Below are positions 6,357 through 38,300 of a DNA stretch of 64,000 bases, one piece after another. Each line of letters begins with the position of its first letter. The stretch's first letter is position 1. A model generated the notes under the pieces. The model did no database searches and was not told where the DNA came from. It was given only the letters and a program-made list of their open reading frames with translations. The position numbers were made by a program, and so were the translations under genes. Location of the stretch: assembly GCA_964007475.1 (NCBI GenBank), contig OZ023273.1, forward strand, positions 125,039,812-125,103,811, in the 5' to 3' direction. The stretch is from Hybos culiciformis. Taxonomy: Eukaryota > Arthropoda > Insecta > Diptera > Hybotidae.

Positions 6357-8172
6357 TATAATTTATACAAATACATAATAGCTTATCATAATTATTGAAC
6401 CATATTAATTCAAGTTTTTTTTTTTTTTCATAAATTGAGTATTTAATTTATATTTTCATAGAATGCAATTTTTTAAAACCCTAAAAGAGCATTATATAAT
6501 TATACATACTTATATGATGTGAAGTAATTTTATATGAACGCACCCTTCTTACAAATATTATAGAACATTTATATGCCTCATTTGACATCAGTTGAGCGAG
6601 AATAGCATTCAATACCGTAATCCAATTCAATGTTCCCATATATTATTAGGTAAATATAATGGTGTTATAAACCTATTCAAAATCTATATTGATATTGATG
6701 TATAGTTAGTAATTATGTTATACTGAGTATAGAAAAATTATTATTTAAGTATTAACTTTGAAGAAAAATTCGTTGGGTAAATTTATTTTTGAGATTTTGA
6801 AAGAAATACAATATTTTTTTAGATTAGATCACATTGTGTGGTTGCAATCCTTAACTTAGCACGCGATAGTATCACGCAATAGAATAAAACGTTTTACATA
6901 ACTTACTAAAATATTTTTTTTAAAAGTTTCAGCTAAGAAAATAATAAGTATTTAGTTTAATTCATTTAAACTTGATCTTTAGATAAATATGACTGGCTCA
7001 TAAACTAAAATTCGTGAAACAAAACATTTTTAACTTTGTACTTAAAATAAATATTTATCTTAAAATTATTTGCTAGCTTCAATCTTCTTTACACTGGTTG
7101 TTGTTTTGCCAAATTTTTCCGAAAAGCCATAAATCGATAGTACAGTAAGTAAGTATAGTAGTACTGTTGACAATTATTATGATATGGTGTTTAGAAGTAC
7201 ATTTTTACACATGTATATAGTTTTCTAAAAATTGTATTACATTATAATTTTCAAGTTAAGTGTAATATTACAAAATTTTACCAAATAAGCTCGTACGAAT
7301 TTTTTTGCTTGTCGGTAGTACCCTTGAAAAAAATGTTAATGACCTCAGGTGCATTTATGCTTTATGTTTTATTTTATTTAATTTACTTCTTTGTATGTGA
7401 AATAATGAAATTTTTTTTCAAAAAAATTTCCATATTTTGATGTTAAATCAGTTAAAAGAAATTTTATGAATAAATAAAAAGAAGATTTAAGGACTTTTTC
7501 ATTATTAGAATTAAGTATTTAACAATGTTTATATGAATTAAAGCACATTTAGTTAATATTGCATAGGTAGTGAGAAAAATTAAAGTTAGTTAAGTACTCA
7601 CTTGTGACAATAAATTAAGGGTGAAAATTAAGTGCAATTGAAAATTATTCTCTCAGCATTTTTTCATACCTCTTATATCGGGGAAGCACATAAGTATAAT
7701 AAGTAATAAGTAAGCTATAGAATTCTAGTTTAATATGCAGATCATATGCTTACTAAGTAGTTTCATGGCGGGCTGGAGCCCCCTATCATATAATAATTAT
7801 AAAGTTTTGTAATTTAAGTTGATTGTTTGATACAACCAAATGCTCTATATATAGTAAGAAGAAATATATTGCTAAATAAATGTACGGAATGCATGCATTG
7901 CTTTTTAGGATGAAAATATTATTTTTTGTTTTATTTTGCCTAATTATAAATTCACTTGTATTTTCATATGCGTACACAGAAAAAAATTTGCTCGTACTAA
8001 TAACTAAATAATTCGTTAAAATCAACGAAAAATTCGTTATTTTGGCTACAACGAACAATTCGTTGAAAAAAGCTCGTAGTTCGTTAAAAAAGTTCGTTAT
8101 ACCCCAAAACCAAAAACCTTTCAAATTCTTCAGCAAAAACACCGCAAATACGAAAGCAAAATTTTACTAGAC

Positions 8173-8421
8173 TAAATTTTTTTTTATTATTTATTTAATT
8201 TTTTATTTATTTCTTTTTTATTTTTTTATTTTTTTTTTAATTTTTTTATTTTTTTTATTTTTTTTTATTTTTTTTATTTTTTTTTTATTTTTTTTTAATT
8301 ATTTTTTTTTTTATTTATTTTATTTATTTTTTTTATTTATTAATTTTTTTTATTTATGTTTCTATTTTTTTTATTTATTTTTTAAATTTTTTTATTTAAT
8401 TTTTTTTTAATAATTTTTTTT
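8173..8421. repeat. A/T-only low-complexity core of element 1
   Basis: About 250 bp of T runs broken by single A or AA (TTTTATTTATTTTT pattern) contain almost no G or C. Relative to the adjacent tRNA-like module it would be read as an A-rich tail. Confidence 0.85.
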
Positions 8422-8494
8422 ATGCCCGCTTGTGGCTTCGAACCACTGTCCTAAACATTGCAATCCATCAACTCTACCACTGAGCTATGAACTA
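8422..8494 (-). repeat. tRNA-derived module (SINE-head-like) inside element 1
   Basis: On the minus strand it has an A-box-like TAGCTCAGTGGTAGAG and a B-box GGTTCGAAGCC (8434-8444), spaced as in a tRNA. There is a good T-arm (GTGG TTCGAAG CCAC) and an anticodon-loop-like ATTGCAA. The acceptor ends do not pair and no 3' CCA-type end is visible, so I do not call a working tRNA. It is most like a tRNA-derived pol III promoter. The downstream side, read in its own orientation, is the A-rich tract. Confidence 0.7.
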
Positions 8495-8744
8495 AATTTA
8501 CGGCAATGTGTAAAATGGAAAATATAAGTTCTGCATGGATTGAAATTTTTGTTTCCCGTATTTAACGATAACGAACTTTTTTAACGAGTACTAAAAATGA
8601 AAAAAATTTTCGTAATAAGAAAATAAACGAAATTTACGTTACAAAAACGTAATTATTCATTATTTTTCGTTATCTTAACGAGAATGTCATTAACGAACTT
8701 TTTTGACGTAATGAGTACGAGCAAATTTTTTTCTGTGTATATGC

Positions 8745-16319: not shown

Positions 16320-16546
16320 ATTGCACGGAGAGAAAAGATTGCTAATATCATATAAAATGTGAATAAATCATGGAAAAAAAGGACTTGTTTTTGACCCGTT
16401 CGCCTTTTTTCTCGAATCATGTATTTTTTTTCCATAATTTTTAGAACTTTTTCATGCACATAACAATCAACTTTACTTCATGAAAAACATATTGTTTGCG
16501 TGAATGAAGAAATAATAAGACGTTATAATGTGCGAGTTTTTTGATA

Positions 16547-16569
16547 ATTCGTGTAAAAGAAACACGAAT
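16547..16569. repeat. 8-bp stem hairpin in element 2 left arm
   Basis: ATTCGTGT (16547-16554) and ACACGAAT (16562-16569) pair perfectly around a 7-nt loop. Confidence 0.7.
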
Positions 16570-16602
16570 CAAGAAACACATGACCTTAAAAAATACATTT
16601 TT

Positions 16603-16680
16603 AATTTCATAGCTTAGCCCATAGGTAGAGATGTCGGTTTGCAATGCTGAGGACCCAGGTTCGAATCTTGAAGAGGACGA
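16603..16680 (+). repeat. tRNA-derived module, plus orientation, in element 2
   Basis: An A-box-like TAGCTTAGCCCATAGGTAGA and a B-box GGTTCGAATCT (16658-16668) are present, with an anticodon-arm-like TCGGT-TTGCAAT-GCTGA that can pair. The T-arm pairs weakly (CAGG/CTTG). There is no acceptor stem. It shares TTTGCAATG with the other two modules. The antisense reads as an open frame (16441-16683) only because of this sequence. Confidence 0.6.
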
Positions 16681-16682
16681 CA

Positions 16683-16905
16683 ATTATGGGAAAAAAAATT
16701 TTTTTATATCATAATTTTTTATTTCATTTTTTTTTCCTTTTATTTTTTTTATTTTATTTTTTTTTTATTTTATTTTTTTTTATTTTTTTTTTATTTATTT
16801 AATTTTTTTTTATTTATTAATTTTTTTTTTATAATTTTTTATTTATTTTATTTACCTATATTTATTAAATTTAATTTTATTAAATTTATAATTGATTTTT
16901 TTGAT
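16683..16905. repeat. A/T-only core of element 2
   Basis: About 220 bp of T runs with scattered A are nearly free of G and C, like the core of element 1, and lie exactly between the two tRNA-like modules. Confidence 0.8.
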
Positions 16906-16911
16906 TTTTCT

Positions 16912-16985
16912 CATGCCCTCTTCGGGATTCGAACCTTGTACTTTTACATTGCAAACGTTCAACTCTACCACTAGGCTAAGAAATT
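16912..16985 (-). repeat. tRNA-derived module, minus orientation, in element 2
   Basis: On the minus strand it has A-box TAGCCTAGTGGTAGAG (16963-16978), GTTTGCAATG in the anticodon-arm position, and B-box GGTTCGAATCC (16925-16935), then GAAGAGGGCATGAG. The last string parallels AAGCGGGCATA after the module in element 1, so the two are probably related copies. There is no acceptor stem. It points toward the plus-strand module across the A/T tract. Confidence 0.65.
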
Positions 16986-17889
16986 GAAATTTAGATAGAG
17001 TGTAAAACAGAAAATATAAATTATATACTGACCACAATATCTTTCTTAAGTTTCAAAAAATTTCATCAAATCAAGAAATAATTTATTTAACTAATGGAAA
17101 ACTGTAACCATAGAATATGAAAAAAATATCATCAAATAAGAAATGTATTCGCAAAGAATCATGTTTTTAATTTTCATGTTTCGTTGAAAAAAAAAATACA
17201 CAAACGAAGGAAAAAAATTCTTAAACTGTGTTAGAATTACATCAAGTAAATATTTACTTAAATTAAGAAATATTTACATAAATGAAGAAATAATTAATTC
17301 ATTAATGAAAATAATCCCATTAAATCAAGCAAGATAAGTTTACTTGAATCATGGAAAAAGCCATAAATAACAGACGAGAAAAAATTGCAAAATTTAAGCA
17401 ACTATTTAACATATCAAGTGAATTCGCTTTGAATTATGAAAATTCGTTTTTTTTCTTAAATTTTAGTGATTATAAAAGTGTATTGCACGATTCTAGAAAA
17501 TTTTTTCCCTCAGTGTGTAGATGGAATAATATTGAATTCATTAATTTTGACTAAAGTTTTAAATTTTACTACTTATATTAATTCTATCTATGAATAATTG
17601 ACACTTAAAACTTGAATTTTAGTTCATTTATAAATCAAAAGCCCCTTTTATTGATTTAATTTGAGTAGTGTTTATAGTAAATTAGTACGATCGAACACAA
17701 ATTAAACTAATTTTGACCAACATTTTGACTTTTTTTTTATTACTGGTCGAACGTTGTTTCACTCTAGCCTAGTCTTTCATTGATAAAAGTTATGGTTTGG
17801 AGTTGATATTAAAATCCCATAGAAAAAAGTACTTTCAGTTTATTTACCTAAAAACCTTATTTGGACTACTTATTAGAAACATTAAAAAA

Positions 17890-35360: not shown

Positions 35361-38300
35361 CTGTAATAAAAAGAAGAAACATAAATTTTATAATTAACCA
35401 CAGTATATTGTTTTAATTACTTGGGTACGTCTTCGGCAATGTCTGGTTCCACACTAAATATCACTTCATCTCTATTGGTTTCTGGTATAGATCTTCGTGT
35501 TTCTAGTAATGTTCGGTCGCAACTATTTTCTACATCGTCAAGGTAATTTAAAATATCCCTGTTATAAATAATTATTTTTTTAATGACAAATATTTTTCTA
35601 GGAACAGAAAGGTATACTAATACTTTAATTTGTCATTTGCCCTCGTTCTACGACTTCCAATTTCTGAATCATTAGATGTGTCATGCTGAAGAAGGGCTTC
35701 AATTTCGAAATCAATATCTCTACGTTCTTCATCTAAAAAAGAAAGTGTTACTCATAAATCAAATTCTAAAAATCTCTATACTTTACCTTTCTTTTTTTCC
35801 TCATTTATTTCTTTTATAACAGAAACAATTTCATCATAAGTAGAATTCGAATCTTCTTGGTCATCTTGTTCATCGCTTTTTGAGGAAGTTTCAGTCGTGG
35901 TTTCGGGAGATGTATTTCTGTGGTAAATGTTAGTATTTCTATTTCTTTGTTTAGAAATATTTCCAGAATGTGCTGAGCCACTAAAGCTTCTTCTATTTCC
36001 ATGTGGTTGATGAATTGACATCCAACTATCAATTTTATCCAAGTGGAATTCATCTAAGTTTGAATCTTCTCTTAACGATGAGTATGTGCCACTTTTTCTA
36101 ATTGGTTTTCCAGTTTTCTGGAACTTATCAGTTGTTGAAGATGCTGAAGCTGATCTGGCTCGTTGGTTCTTTAAATTTTTGCGTGATAATTTACTTCCTT
36201 GTGAATTAATATTAACATTAATTGTTTTCTTCTTAGAACTAAGTTCACCAGACATTTTTAGGTAATTATGGGCAGCACGATTGTCCGACGAAGAGTATCC
36301 AGAAGATATTCGATCGAGTGTATTTAAAGAAGAGTCTGATATTGAAAGAGGATCACTTTTTGTTTTCTTATATTTTTCAATAAATTCGTTTTTTTCACAA
36401 CTGTTATTATTATCTTTCAGATTTGTTTCAAAATTTTTCTCTTGTACTTTAACTACATCACTTTTAACATCGATTTCTTTCAAATTTTTTGGCAAATAAT
36501 TTGAGTAAATATTACTTTTAGTGGTTTCCGCATCATTCAGTTTTAGTTCAAGTTCAATTTTTTTGCTTGAATCATTGATAGTTTTTTTATAATCTTTAAT
36601 TATTTGACTTTCTTGAGGCTCAACATGGGTTACTTTTAAATAATCTTCAGTATTCTTTTCATTTATGGTTTTTCCATTTCCGTGTGAGTGTTGGAAATCT
36701 GATGAATTGCATGAGTATTCAAATGGATATCCAGCATTTTCAGGTGGACTGAGAACACCATCACTATTATTAGAATGGCTCGATCTTGTGCTGCATGAGC
36801 AGTTATCCGAGGGACACTTAGGGTATGTTTCAGCTTGCACTGCTTCATTGAAATGTACTGTTTTCTTCCCCGAAGTACTTGGAGCAATTTCTTGATTATC
36901 GTCACTCGTTTCGACATCGTAAGGAACTGGCTGTCTACCTCCAAATGAAACTCTTCCAGGAAGATCTGGTTTAGAATCGCTCCAATAATTTCCTTTCGAT
37001 GACATTGAAGATGTGGGCCTGGAATTTGAAGTCAGTTTTTGTGATGTTTTTAGTTCTTGAAATTTTTCTGAGGACCTTAATTTATGCTCTACTTCTGTTG
37101 AGCCTGTAATGCTAATTGTACAATGTTTTTTAAGTATTTAATCTATTTAATCAGTTCAATTTAGAGAGAAAAAATCACAGAATAACTTATGGAATATCAC
37201 AGATTGTCAAAATAAAAGAACAATCGTGTTTAACCTATATGTGAATGGTGCTGTCCTTAAGAATATCTATTTTTATCAGACTGCCATTTAAATAAAAACC
37301 TACATTTTATATATAAAAAAATTGTTAGCTGGCTTTTAGCTTATGAAAAAATTGTTGGCTGGCTTTTAGCTTATTTGCGTGAATCGTAGCCAATTTAGTT
37401 TTTTTTTTGCTATTAAATTAAAAAATAAAACGATACTTACCTTAAATGTGAGTCTAAATTTTTGTAATTAATACCTTCTTCAATACTACCGTCATGCGAT
37501 TTTGATAGCTGATGTGAAAAGCTTTTTTCGTATTTAGCTAAAGTTTTGTTATCAAAAATTTTGCCAAAATTAGTATTTACTGAAATTGGAAAATTTCTTT
37601 TGATTGGTTCATCCAATAATAATTGTAAAAGATTTGATGAAGATGTTGTTAAATATTTTTTCTAAAAATAATATAAATTTTTCCTAATAAAGTATAAACA
37701 TAAAAATATAGCATAATAGTTTTATAATTTATAACTATTTGCGAATAGCTGTAACATTAAAAGCTGAGTAAGTAAAGTAAGTAAGTAAGCTTCGGGTTTT
37801 TTGGCTTAAAGGTAAAGAAAGCGTGAATTTCGTATTGGCATTGATTAAAAATATTAAAAAAAATCCTGTAGTAACAATTTGTGAATGATGTCGTCTGATG
37901 CGAAATAGTAGAAATACATTTCTATTGCAAAATATTAAGCTTCTGAGTAAGCTTTCATCATTGGAATATTATTAGTTTTAATTTCATCGTTAAATTGATT
38001 TTGATATCCTTTTTGTTGTACTCTTGTACTTACATTTTTCAATGGTTTTCCTTCATTTAAGATTTTCTCCGAAAATTTAATACAATTATTTAAGCTTCTT
38101 GCTAGTTTGGCATCAGCTGATTGTGGTCTATTTTTCAAAGATGATGAACGTGGTCTAGAAAATTTTATACCAACACTATTTGCTGAACTCGGGCGACTGT
38201 AGCTTAATATCGGATATTTTATTGTTGGTGGTTTCGGTTTATGTTTTGTAGCTAAATTAATCTAAAAAACAATGTTTTTTCGTTTTATATTGATTTCAGT

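What the first reader, a model, noticed from the sequence alone, without database searches (positions are those of the whole stretch)
7974..8738. TIR element carrying a tRNA-like module and an A/T-only core
Seen: perfect 25-bp terminal inverted repeats, many TTCGTTA subterminal repeats, a tRNA-like A-box/B-box unit and about 250 bp of nearly pure T/A in one 765-bp unit. MITEs and SINEs are normally separate classes; here a DNA-element shell encloses what looks like a SINE head plus its A-rich tract. Inference: either a SINE inserted into a MITE that then spread, or a composite family in which the pol III module is a fixed part.
Basis: partly seen in the sequence, partly recalled or inferred. 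Interest (0 to 1): 0.75.

Follow-up and report, generated by a model that had tools for sequence, protein, structure and literature searches.

The report
DNA transposon carrying a SINE-like module
In this insect-like genome a small cut-and-paste DNA element carries a tRNA-derived, SINE-like module and an A/T-only tract as fixed cargo, and the same module is found inside several other DNA-element families with unrelated ends.

Summary
The element is 7975-8737 (763 bp), with perfect 24-bp TIRs (CACAG...) and a TA target duplication. A tRNA-like unit (A box, B box) lies on the minus strand, followed in its own sense by a 241-bp A/T tract. It is not a private nested insertion. A 14-base TIR core occurs 683 times in the genome. 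Of the first 100 hits, 98 belong to 55 short copies, all 55 with the module; the other two are the ends of one 20.4-kb element. Searching the arms joined without the module gave no empty copy among 40 scored, only one internal-deletion derivative. The 20.4-kb element has the same TIRs and arms and a CACTA-like transposase; five further transposase copies (99-100%) have the same left end at the same distance. The same module (conserved 5' box, A box, B box, A-rich tract) also sits in other elements: a 1192-bp family in this window with two inverted modules, and families with unrelated arms, one with GGGAG TIRs and 9-bp duplications. How the module entered each family is open: no consistent target duplication flanks it. 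Closest precedent: MER6 carrying a V-SINE body.

The parts
7973..7974 (.). target site duplication TA, left
   Evidence: 2-bp duplication identical in 73 of 77 copies, TA in 56
7975..7998 (+). left TIR CACAGAAAAAAATTTGCTCGTACT
7975..8099 (+). left arm shared with the 20.4-kb element
   Evidence: 95.2% to L083 159-284
8100..8179 (+). inner left segment, not found in the fetched parts of the 20.4-kb element; 8100-8175 also found in A3 copy L132 at 89%
8180..8420 (-). A/T tract (241 bp, 3 G/C), A-rich in the sense of the tRNA-like unit
8421..8487 (-). tRNA-like unit: A box 8472-8487, B box 8435-8444
8488..8531 (-). leader upstream of the A box, beginning with the conserved TTATATTTTC box
   Evidence: edge at offset -90 shared by 7 host-family representatives
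8532..8567 (+). inner right segment, not found in the fetched parts of the 20.4-kb element
8568..8737 (+). right arm shared with the 20.4-kb element, ending in the right TIR 8714-8737
   Evidence: 97.6% over 170 bp to L084 9673-9842
8738..8739 (.). target site duplication TA, right
16324..17515 (.). second composite element in the window (family B, 1192 bp, CACGGAGA...CCTCAGTG, TG duplication) with two inverted tRNA-like modules around an A/T core
16608..16680 (+). tRNA-like module S3 of family B (without the conserved leader)
16914..17022 (-). tRNA-like module S2 of family B with the conserved leader

Best explanation
The element is one copy of a non-autonomous CACTA/EnSpm-like DNA transposon family whose interior holds, as a fixed part, a tRNA-derived SINE-like module. 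SHOWN: module and shell multiplied together, with 2-bp target duplications, in the copies read (TIR hits point to hundreds), and a 20.4-kb element with the same ends encodes a transposase-like protein. INFERRED: that protein moves the short copies in trans; the module entered the family's ancestor once and was then multiplied by cut-and-paste transposition. SHOWN: the same module occurs inside several other families with unrelated arms. INFERRED: it was acquired repeatedly, either as a retroposed SINE or by DNA exchange between elements (flanking pieces that travel with the module favour DNA exchange in some cases).
For: TIR 14-mer 339+344 hits, control 1+0; module matched in 80 of 80 fetched loci L001-L080 (the window copy among them; partly in L077), both TIRs in 78; identical 2-bp duplications in 73 of 77; no module-free copy in the joined-arm search, 40 of 642 candidates scored. 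Partner: arms 95-98%, transposase frame whose organism-named homologues are all insects and sub-threshold Plavaka/tnp2 matches in two of six homologues scanned; six near-identical transposase copies each 6.35-6.39 kb from a 99-100% copy of the left end. Other families: sharp shared 5' edge (mean 20-nt identity 0.41-0.49 at offsets -300 to -105, 0.82 at -90; 7 representatives), no arm homology between A, B, D1, D2 and E beyond matches of at most 48 bp, own ends and duplications.
Against: No unambiguous target duplication flanks the module in family A. The conserved unit starts about 44 nt upstream of the A box, longer than a usual tRNA-SINE head (recalled). No free SINE family was found, but only the pattern hits listed first were looked at. 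Only one 20.4-kb copy was read at both ends, and about 800 bp of its middle were not fetched. The transposase frame itself has no Pfam match. Rfam gave no match at all to the family B modules. Pol III transcription was not tested; the unit's RNA fold is unremarkable (z -0.91).
Confidence: 0.8

Rival explanations
1. The module is a private SINE insertion nested in one MITE copy.
For: A 9-bp direct repeat ACTAAATTT is present at 8171-8179 and 8491-8499.
Against: The module is matched in all 80 loci L001-L080; the right copy of the 9-mer lies inside the leader that other families share.
Confidence: 0.02
2. The module moves between DNA elements at the DNA level (template switching, nested insertion with arm exchange) rather than by retroposition; it is a travelling pol III gene unit.
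For: The conserved unit includes a TATA-like box upstream of where a tRNA-type transcript would start (interpretation recalled). A3 copies share with A the module plus 76-78 bp next to it, not the outer arms. D1 and D2 share sequence from -161/-171 before GGTAGAG, and D1 and G from -173 before the B box. No consistent target duplication.
Against: The A-rich tract follows the head as in a SINE; the common 5' edge in 7 representatives fits retroposition with a defined end; in D2 a 15-bp direct repeat flanks a larger unit holding the module (chance 2 of 3000 simulations).
Confidence: 0.4
3. The pol III unit is kept by selection because it helps the MITEs (transcription, chromatin or copy control).
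For: Between-family identity peaks at the 5' box (0.82), A box (0.76) and B box (0.80), against 0.62-0.70 elsewhere in the unit.
Against: Within family A the module diverges (0.79%) about as the left arm does (0.81%), the right arm 2.4%; the peaks may reflect constraint on a source SINE before capture.
Confidence: 0.15
4. The module is an original component of the autonomous transposon.
For: A tRNA-like module is found in L084 at 1409-1535.
Against: That module lies between G-type ends GGGAG...CCACTCCC (741 bp, about L084 984-1724), is closer to the D type than to the A type (scores 156 against 91), and no other module was found in L083 or L084.
Confidence: 0.05

Closest known systems
MER6/MER6A, mammalian Tc1/mariner MITE carrying a V-SINE body (PMC6887750; abstract, section 2.4 and part 1 of 2 of the discussion read)
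   Same: A SINE piece inside a MITE, multiplied with the MITE; the parental SINE not found in the carrier genomes
   Different: MER6 has SINE body and tail without the tRNA head, in one family; here the head with A and B boxes is kept and the module is in several families with at least two kinds of ends
CACTA/EnSpm (TRC) transposons of animals (PMC1636069, passages) and the CMCT clade (PMC12730594, passages)
   Same: CAC...GTG type ends, 2-bp target duplications, transposase homologues with weak similarity to tnp2/Plavaka
   Different: TIR core is CACAG, not CACTA; Pfam matches of homologues lie below the cut-offs
tRNA-derived SINEs (general knowledge)
   Same: tRNA-like head with A and B boxes followed by an A-rich tract
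   Different: Conserved leader of about 44 nt, no free copies or clean target duplications found here; in family B and L147 doubled tail to tail
Mutator-like (MULE) MITEs (general knowledge)
   Same: Family G: GGGAG TIRs, 9-bp target duplications in 3 of 5 copies
   Different: Carries the SINE-like module; few copies read, no transposase sought

Membership tests
MITE / non-autonomous DNA transposon | TIRs and uniform target duplications in many copies | tested here: met
   683 TIR-core hits; 73 of 77 identical 2-bp duplications
MITE / non-autonomous DNA transposon | ends shared with an autonomous element | tested here: met
   arms 95-98% to the 20.4-kb element; its left end beside 6 of 6 near-identical transposase copies. 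That this element is active was not tested
CACTA/EnSpm | CA(C)...(G)TG ends and short (2-5 bp) target duplications | tested here: met
   criterion from passages of PMC1636069 and PMC12730594
CACTA/EnSpm | transposase of the tnp2/EnSpm kind | tested here: inconclusive
   own 513-aa frame no Pfam match; of 6 homologues scanned P0054 matches Plavaka 24.1 bits (cut-off 26.3) and tnp2 16.1 bits (28.6), P0062 Plavaka 14.9 bits
tRNA-derived SINE | internal A and B boxes | tested here: met
tRNA-derived SINE | A-rich or simple-repeat 3' tail | tested here: met
tRNA-derived SINE | flanking target duplications of 7-20 bp at the module ends | tested here: inconclusive
   family A only a weak candidate by eye; D2 15-bp repeat around a larger unit
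tRNA-derived SINE | free dispersed copies | tested here: inconclusive
   of the 20 loci only L124 shared nothing but the head and tract with the other loci, and it lacks the leader; its flanks were not searched in the genome, and the genome was not scanned exhaustively
tRNA-derived SINE | pol III transcription | not testable with these tools
   no expression data
MULE (family G) | 9-bp target duplications | tested here: met
   identical in 3 of 5 copies with both ends found, 7 loci looked at
MULE (family G) | MULE transposase in a partner element | not tested
   no call

The most novel reading that the evidence does not exclude
A complete pol III unit (TATA-like box, A box, B box, A/T tract) has become a general, repeatedly acquired cargo of DNA transposons of at least two superfamilies in one genome, surviving there without a free SINE form, possibly because it benefits the carriers.
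Probability: 0.25. Interest if true: 0.8.

Novelty: new variant of a known kind. Interest (0 to 1): 0.62.

Why it matters
SINEs and MITEs are treated as separate classes moved by separate enzymes. Here a SINE-like head travels on cut-and-paste elements, in several families at once. If general, it would give SINEs an escape from dependence on LINEs and MITEs an internal pol III promoter, and it will confuse repeat annotation (SINE hits that are really MITE pieces). A probable autonomous partner with near-identical long open frames makes the system testable.

Tried and rejected
Private nested insertion: rejected. First TSD guess ACTAAATTT: rejected because one copy lies in the shared leader. C1:150449160-150449538, first noted as an empty site, proved on reading to be an internal deletion that keeps the leader and half the tRNA-like unit (corrected). 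Module as an original part of the 20.4-kb element: rejected, it lies in a nested G-type element. IMG/VR scans with the TIR and with a module pattern: no hits, though records of this genome may be left out there. Host named from the 453-aa ORF: not possible; 'insect-like' rests on the organism-named homologues of the transposase, which show where relatives of that mobile protein occur and do not name the host. Native tRNA upstream regions (to test the TATA-like box) could not be searched, server busy, nor could a further module count. In the edge test the rows A3 (related to A), B_S3 and J147rev were left out; the last two lack the conserved leader in the alignment of the same call. In one search one family B end pair (L106, 794 bp, 6 errors) and one family H end (L146) are doubtful but stand in the counts.

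Full report
What is there. The window is A+T-rich (20-30% G+C per 2 kb) and lies in a 342-Mb assembly of 509 contigs. The element proper is 7975-8737: a 24-bp perfect TIR (CACAG...), TA duplications on both sides, TTCGTTA-rich arms, an inner 241-bp A/T tract, and on the minus strand a decayed tRNA-like unit. The TIR is far beyond chance (26 nt with the TA, against a maximum of 16 in 30 simulated windows).

It is a family. The whole element as query gave 873 candidates, of which 40 were scored; all 40, the window copy among them, were near full-length at 95-100%. The TIR 14-mer occurs 339+344 times (reversed control 1+0). The first 100 listed hits form 43 pairs with outer spans of 689-771 bp and 14 single hits (counted from the list). 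I fetched 36 pairs afresh; the other 7 were among the loci already fetched. Twelve of the 14 singles are copies whose partner TIR is altered, displaced or missing, and all 12 carry the module, L077 in part; the other two are the ends of one 20.4-kb element. So 55 of 55 short copies behind these 100 hits carry the module. Over L001-L080 the module query matched in 80 of 80, both TIRs were found in 78, and lengths ran 711-794 bp. Of these 78, L050 was dropped for lack of exact ends; 73 of 77 have identical 2-bp duplications, TA in 56, otherwise TG, CA, TT, TC, AA, CG.

No empty copy found. The two arms joined without the module gave 642 candidates, 40 scored; one match was continuous. Reading it showed an internal deletion joining the left arm to the middle of the tRNA-like unit, not an empty site.

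The probable autonomous partner. One TIR pair lies 20.4 kb apart, with the left arm (126 aligned positions, 95.2%), the right arm (170, 97.6%) and TG duplications. Two pieces of it were fetched, all but about 800 bp in the middle. L083 holds a 513-aa and an adjoining 315-aa frame. The 513-aa frame has 104 homologues, those with an organism name all insects; it has no Pfam match and its neighbour none above cut-off; of six homologues scanned, P0054 matches Plavaka and tnp2 and P0062 Plavaka, all below the cut-offs. In this genome 86 matches were found, six of them 99-100%, five of those with open frames of 827-829 aa. The left end of the long element has six copies at 99-100% and three at 75-76% (40 of 439 candidates scored); each of the six lies 6.35-6.39 kb from one of the six transposase copies, distances I worked out from the two listings. 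CAC...GTG ends with 2-bp duplications fit CACTA/EnSpm relatives (passages of PMC1636069 and PMC12730594). That this protein moves the short copies is inference.

The module is not confined to this family. A second composite element lies in the same window (16324-17515): of 26 loci examined 25 had both ends (one pair doubtful), 23 of 25 identical 2-bp duplications, and 22 of 25 two GGTTCGAA boxes. Pattern searches for the module gave 102+102 hits (control 0+0) and, more loosely, 610+1826 raw and overlapping hits (control 190+70). Loci taken from the listed hits show further hosts: D1 (ends in 4 of 4, duplication in 2 of 4), D2 (4 of 4 and 4 of 4; copies 99.6-100% alike), A2 (5 of 5, 5 of 5), A3 (2 of 2, 1 of 2), H (2 of 2, one end doubtful, 1 of 2), G with GGGAG ends and 9-bp duplications (ends in 5 of 7, duplication in 3 of 5), and E, whose ends are uncertain (ends in 4 of 6, duplication in 0 of 4). 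Arms of A, B, D1, D2 and E show no homology beyond matches of at most 48 bp; in comparisons of G, H, L147, E, D1, A3 and L124 the shared stretch is mostly the module alone (D1 and G share more, see below). Across seven representatives the similarity starts sharply at offset -90 from the B box and peaks at the 5' TTATATTTTC box, the A box and the B box.

How the module got in. For retroposition speak the head-then-A-tract order, the common 5' edge, and a 15-bp repeat in D2 around a larger unit. Against it, or for DNA exchange, speak the leader with a TATA-like box (the comparison with pol III promoters is recalled), flanking pieces that travel with the module (A and A3; D1 and D2; D1 and G), and the lack of a clear duplication in family A. 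I leave this open, with DNA exchange at 0.4.

Literature. PMC6887750 (abstract, section 2.4, part 1 of 2 of the discussion) is a clear precedent: a V-SINE body inside the MITE MER6. The searches listed no paper whose title or start of abstract shows a tRNA-headed module shared by several MITE families; this covers only that open-access library and those terms.

Noticed in passing
window 16324-17515: Second composite MITE family (B) with two inverted tRNA-like modules around an A/T core; the same doubled, tail-to-tail arrangement is seen in L147.
   Followed up: partly
L112, L115, L116, L118: D2 composite MITE copies 99.6-100% identical, a very young family, with a 15-bp direct repeat (AATTCTTATTGAAAT) around its interior unit.
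   Followed up: partly
L138, L139, L140, L142; nested copy at about L084 984-1724: GGGAG...CCACTCCC elements, 9-bp target duplications in L139, L140 and L142 (MULE-like), carrying the module; one sits inside the 20.4-kb CACTA-like element.
   Followed up: partly
L083 6526-9015, minus: CACTA-like transposase frames; 86 matches in this genome including five near-identical long open frames and other near-identical groups.
   Followed up: partly
L151: Internal-deletion derivative of family A with the junction at a short shared word (CGAAC).
   Followed up: yes
window 35776-37137, minus: 453-aa open frame with 41 unnamed homologues and no Pfam match; probably an exon of a host gene.
   Followed up: no
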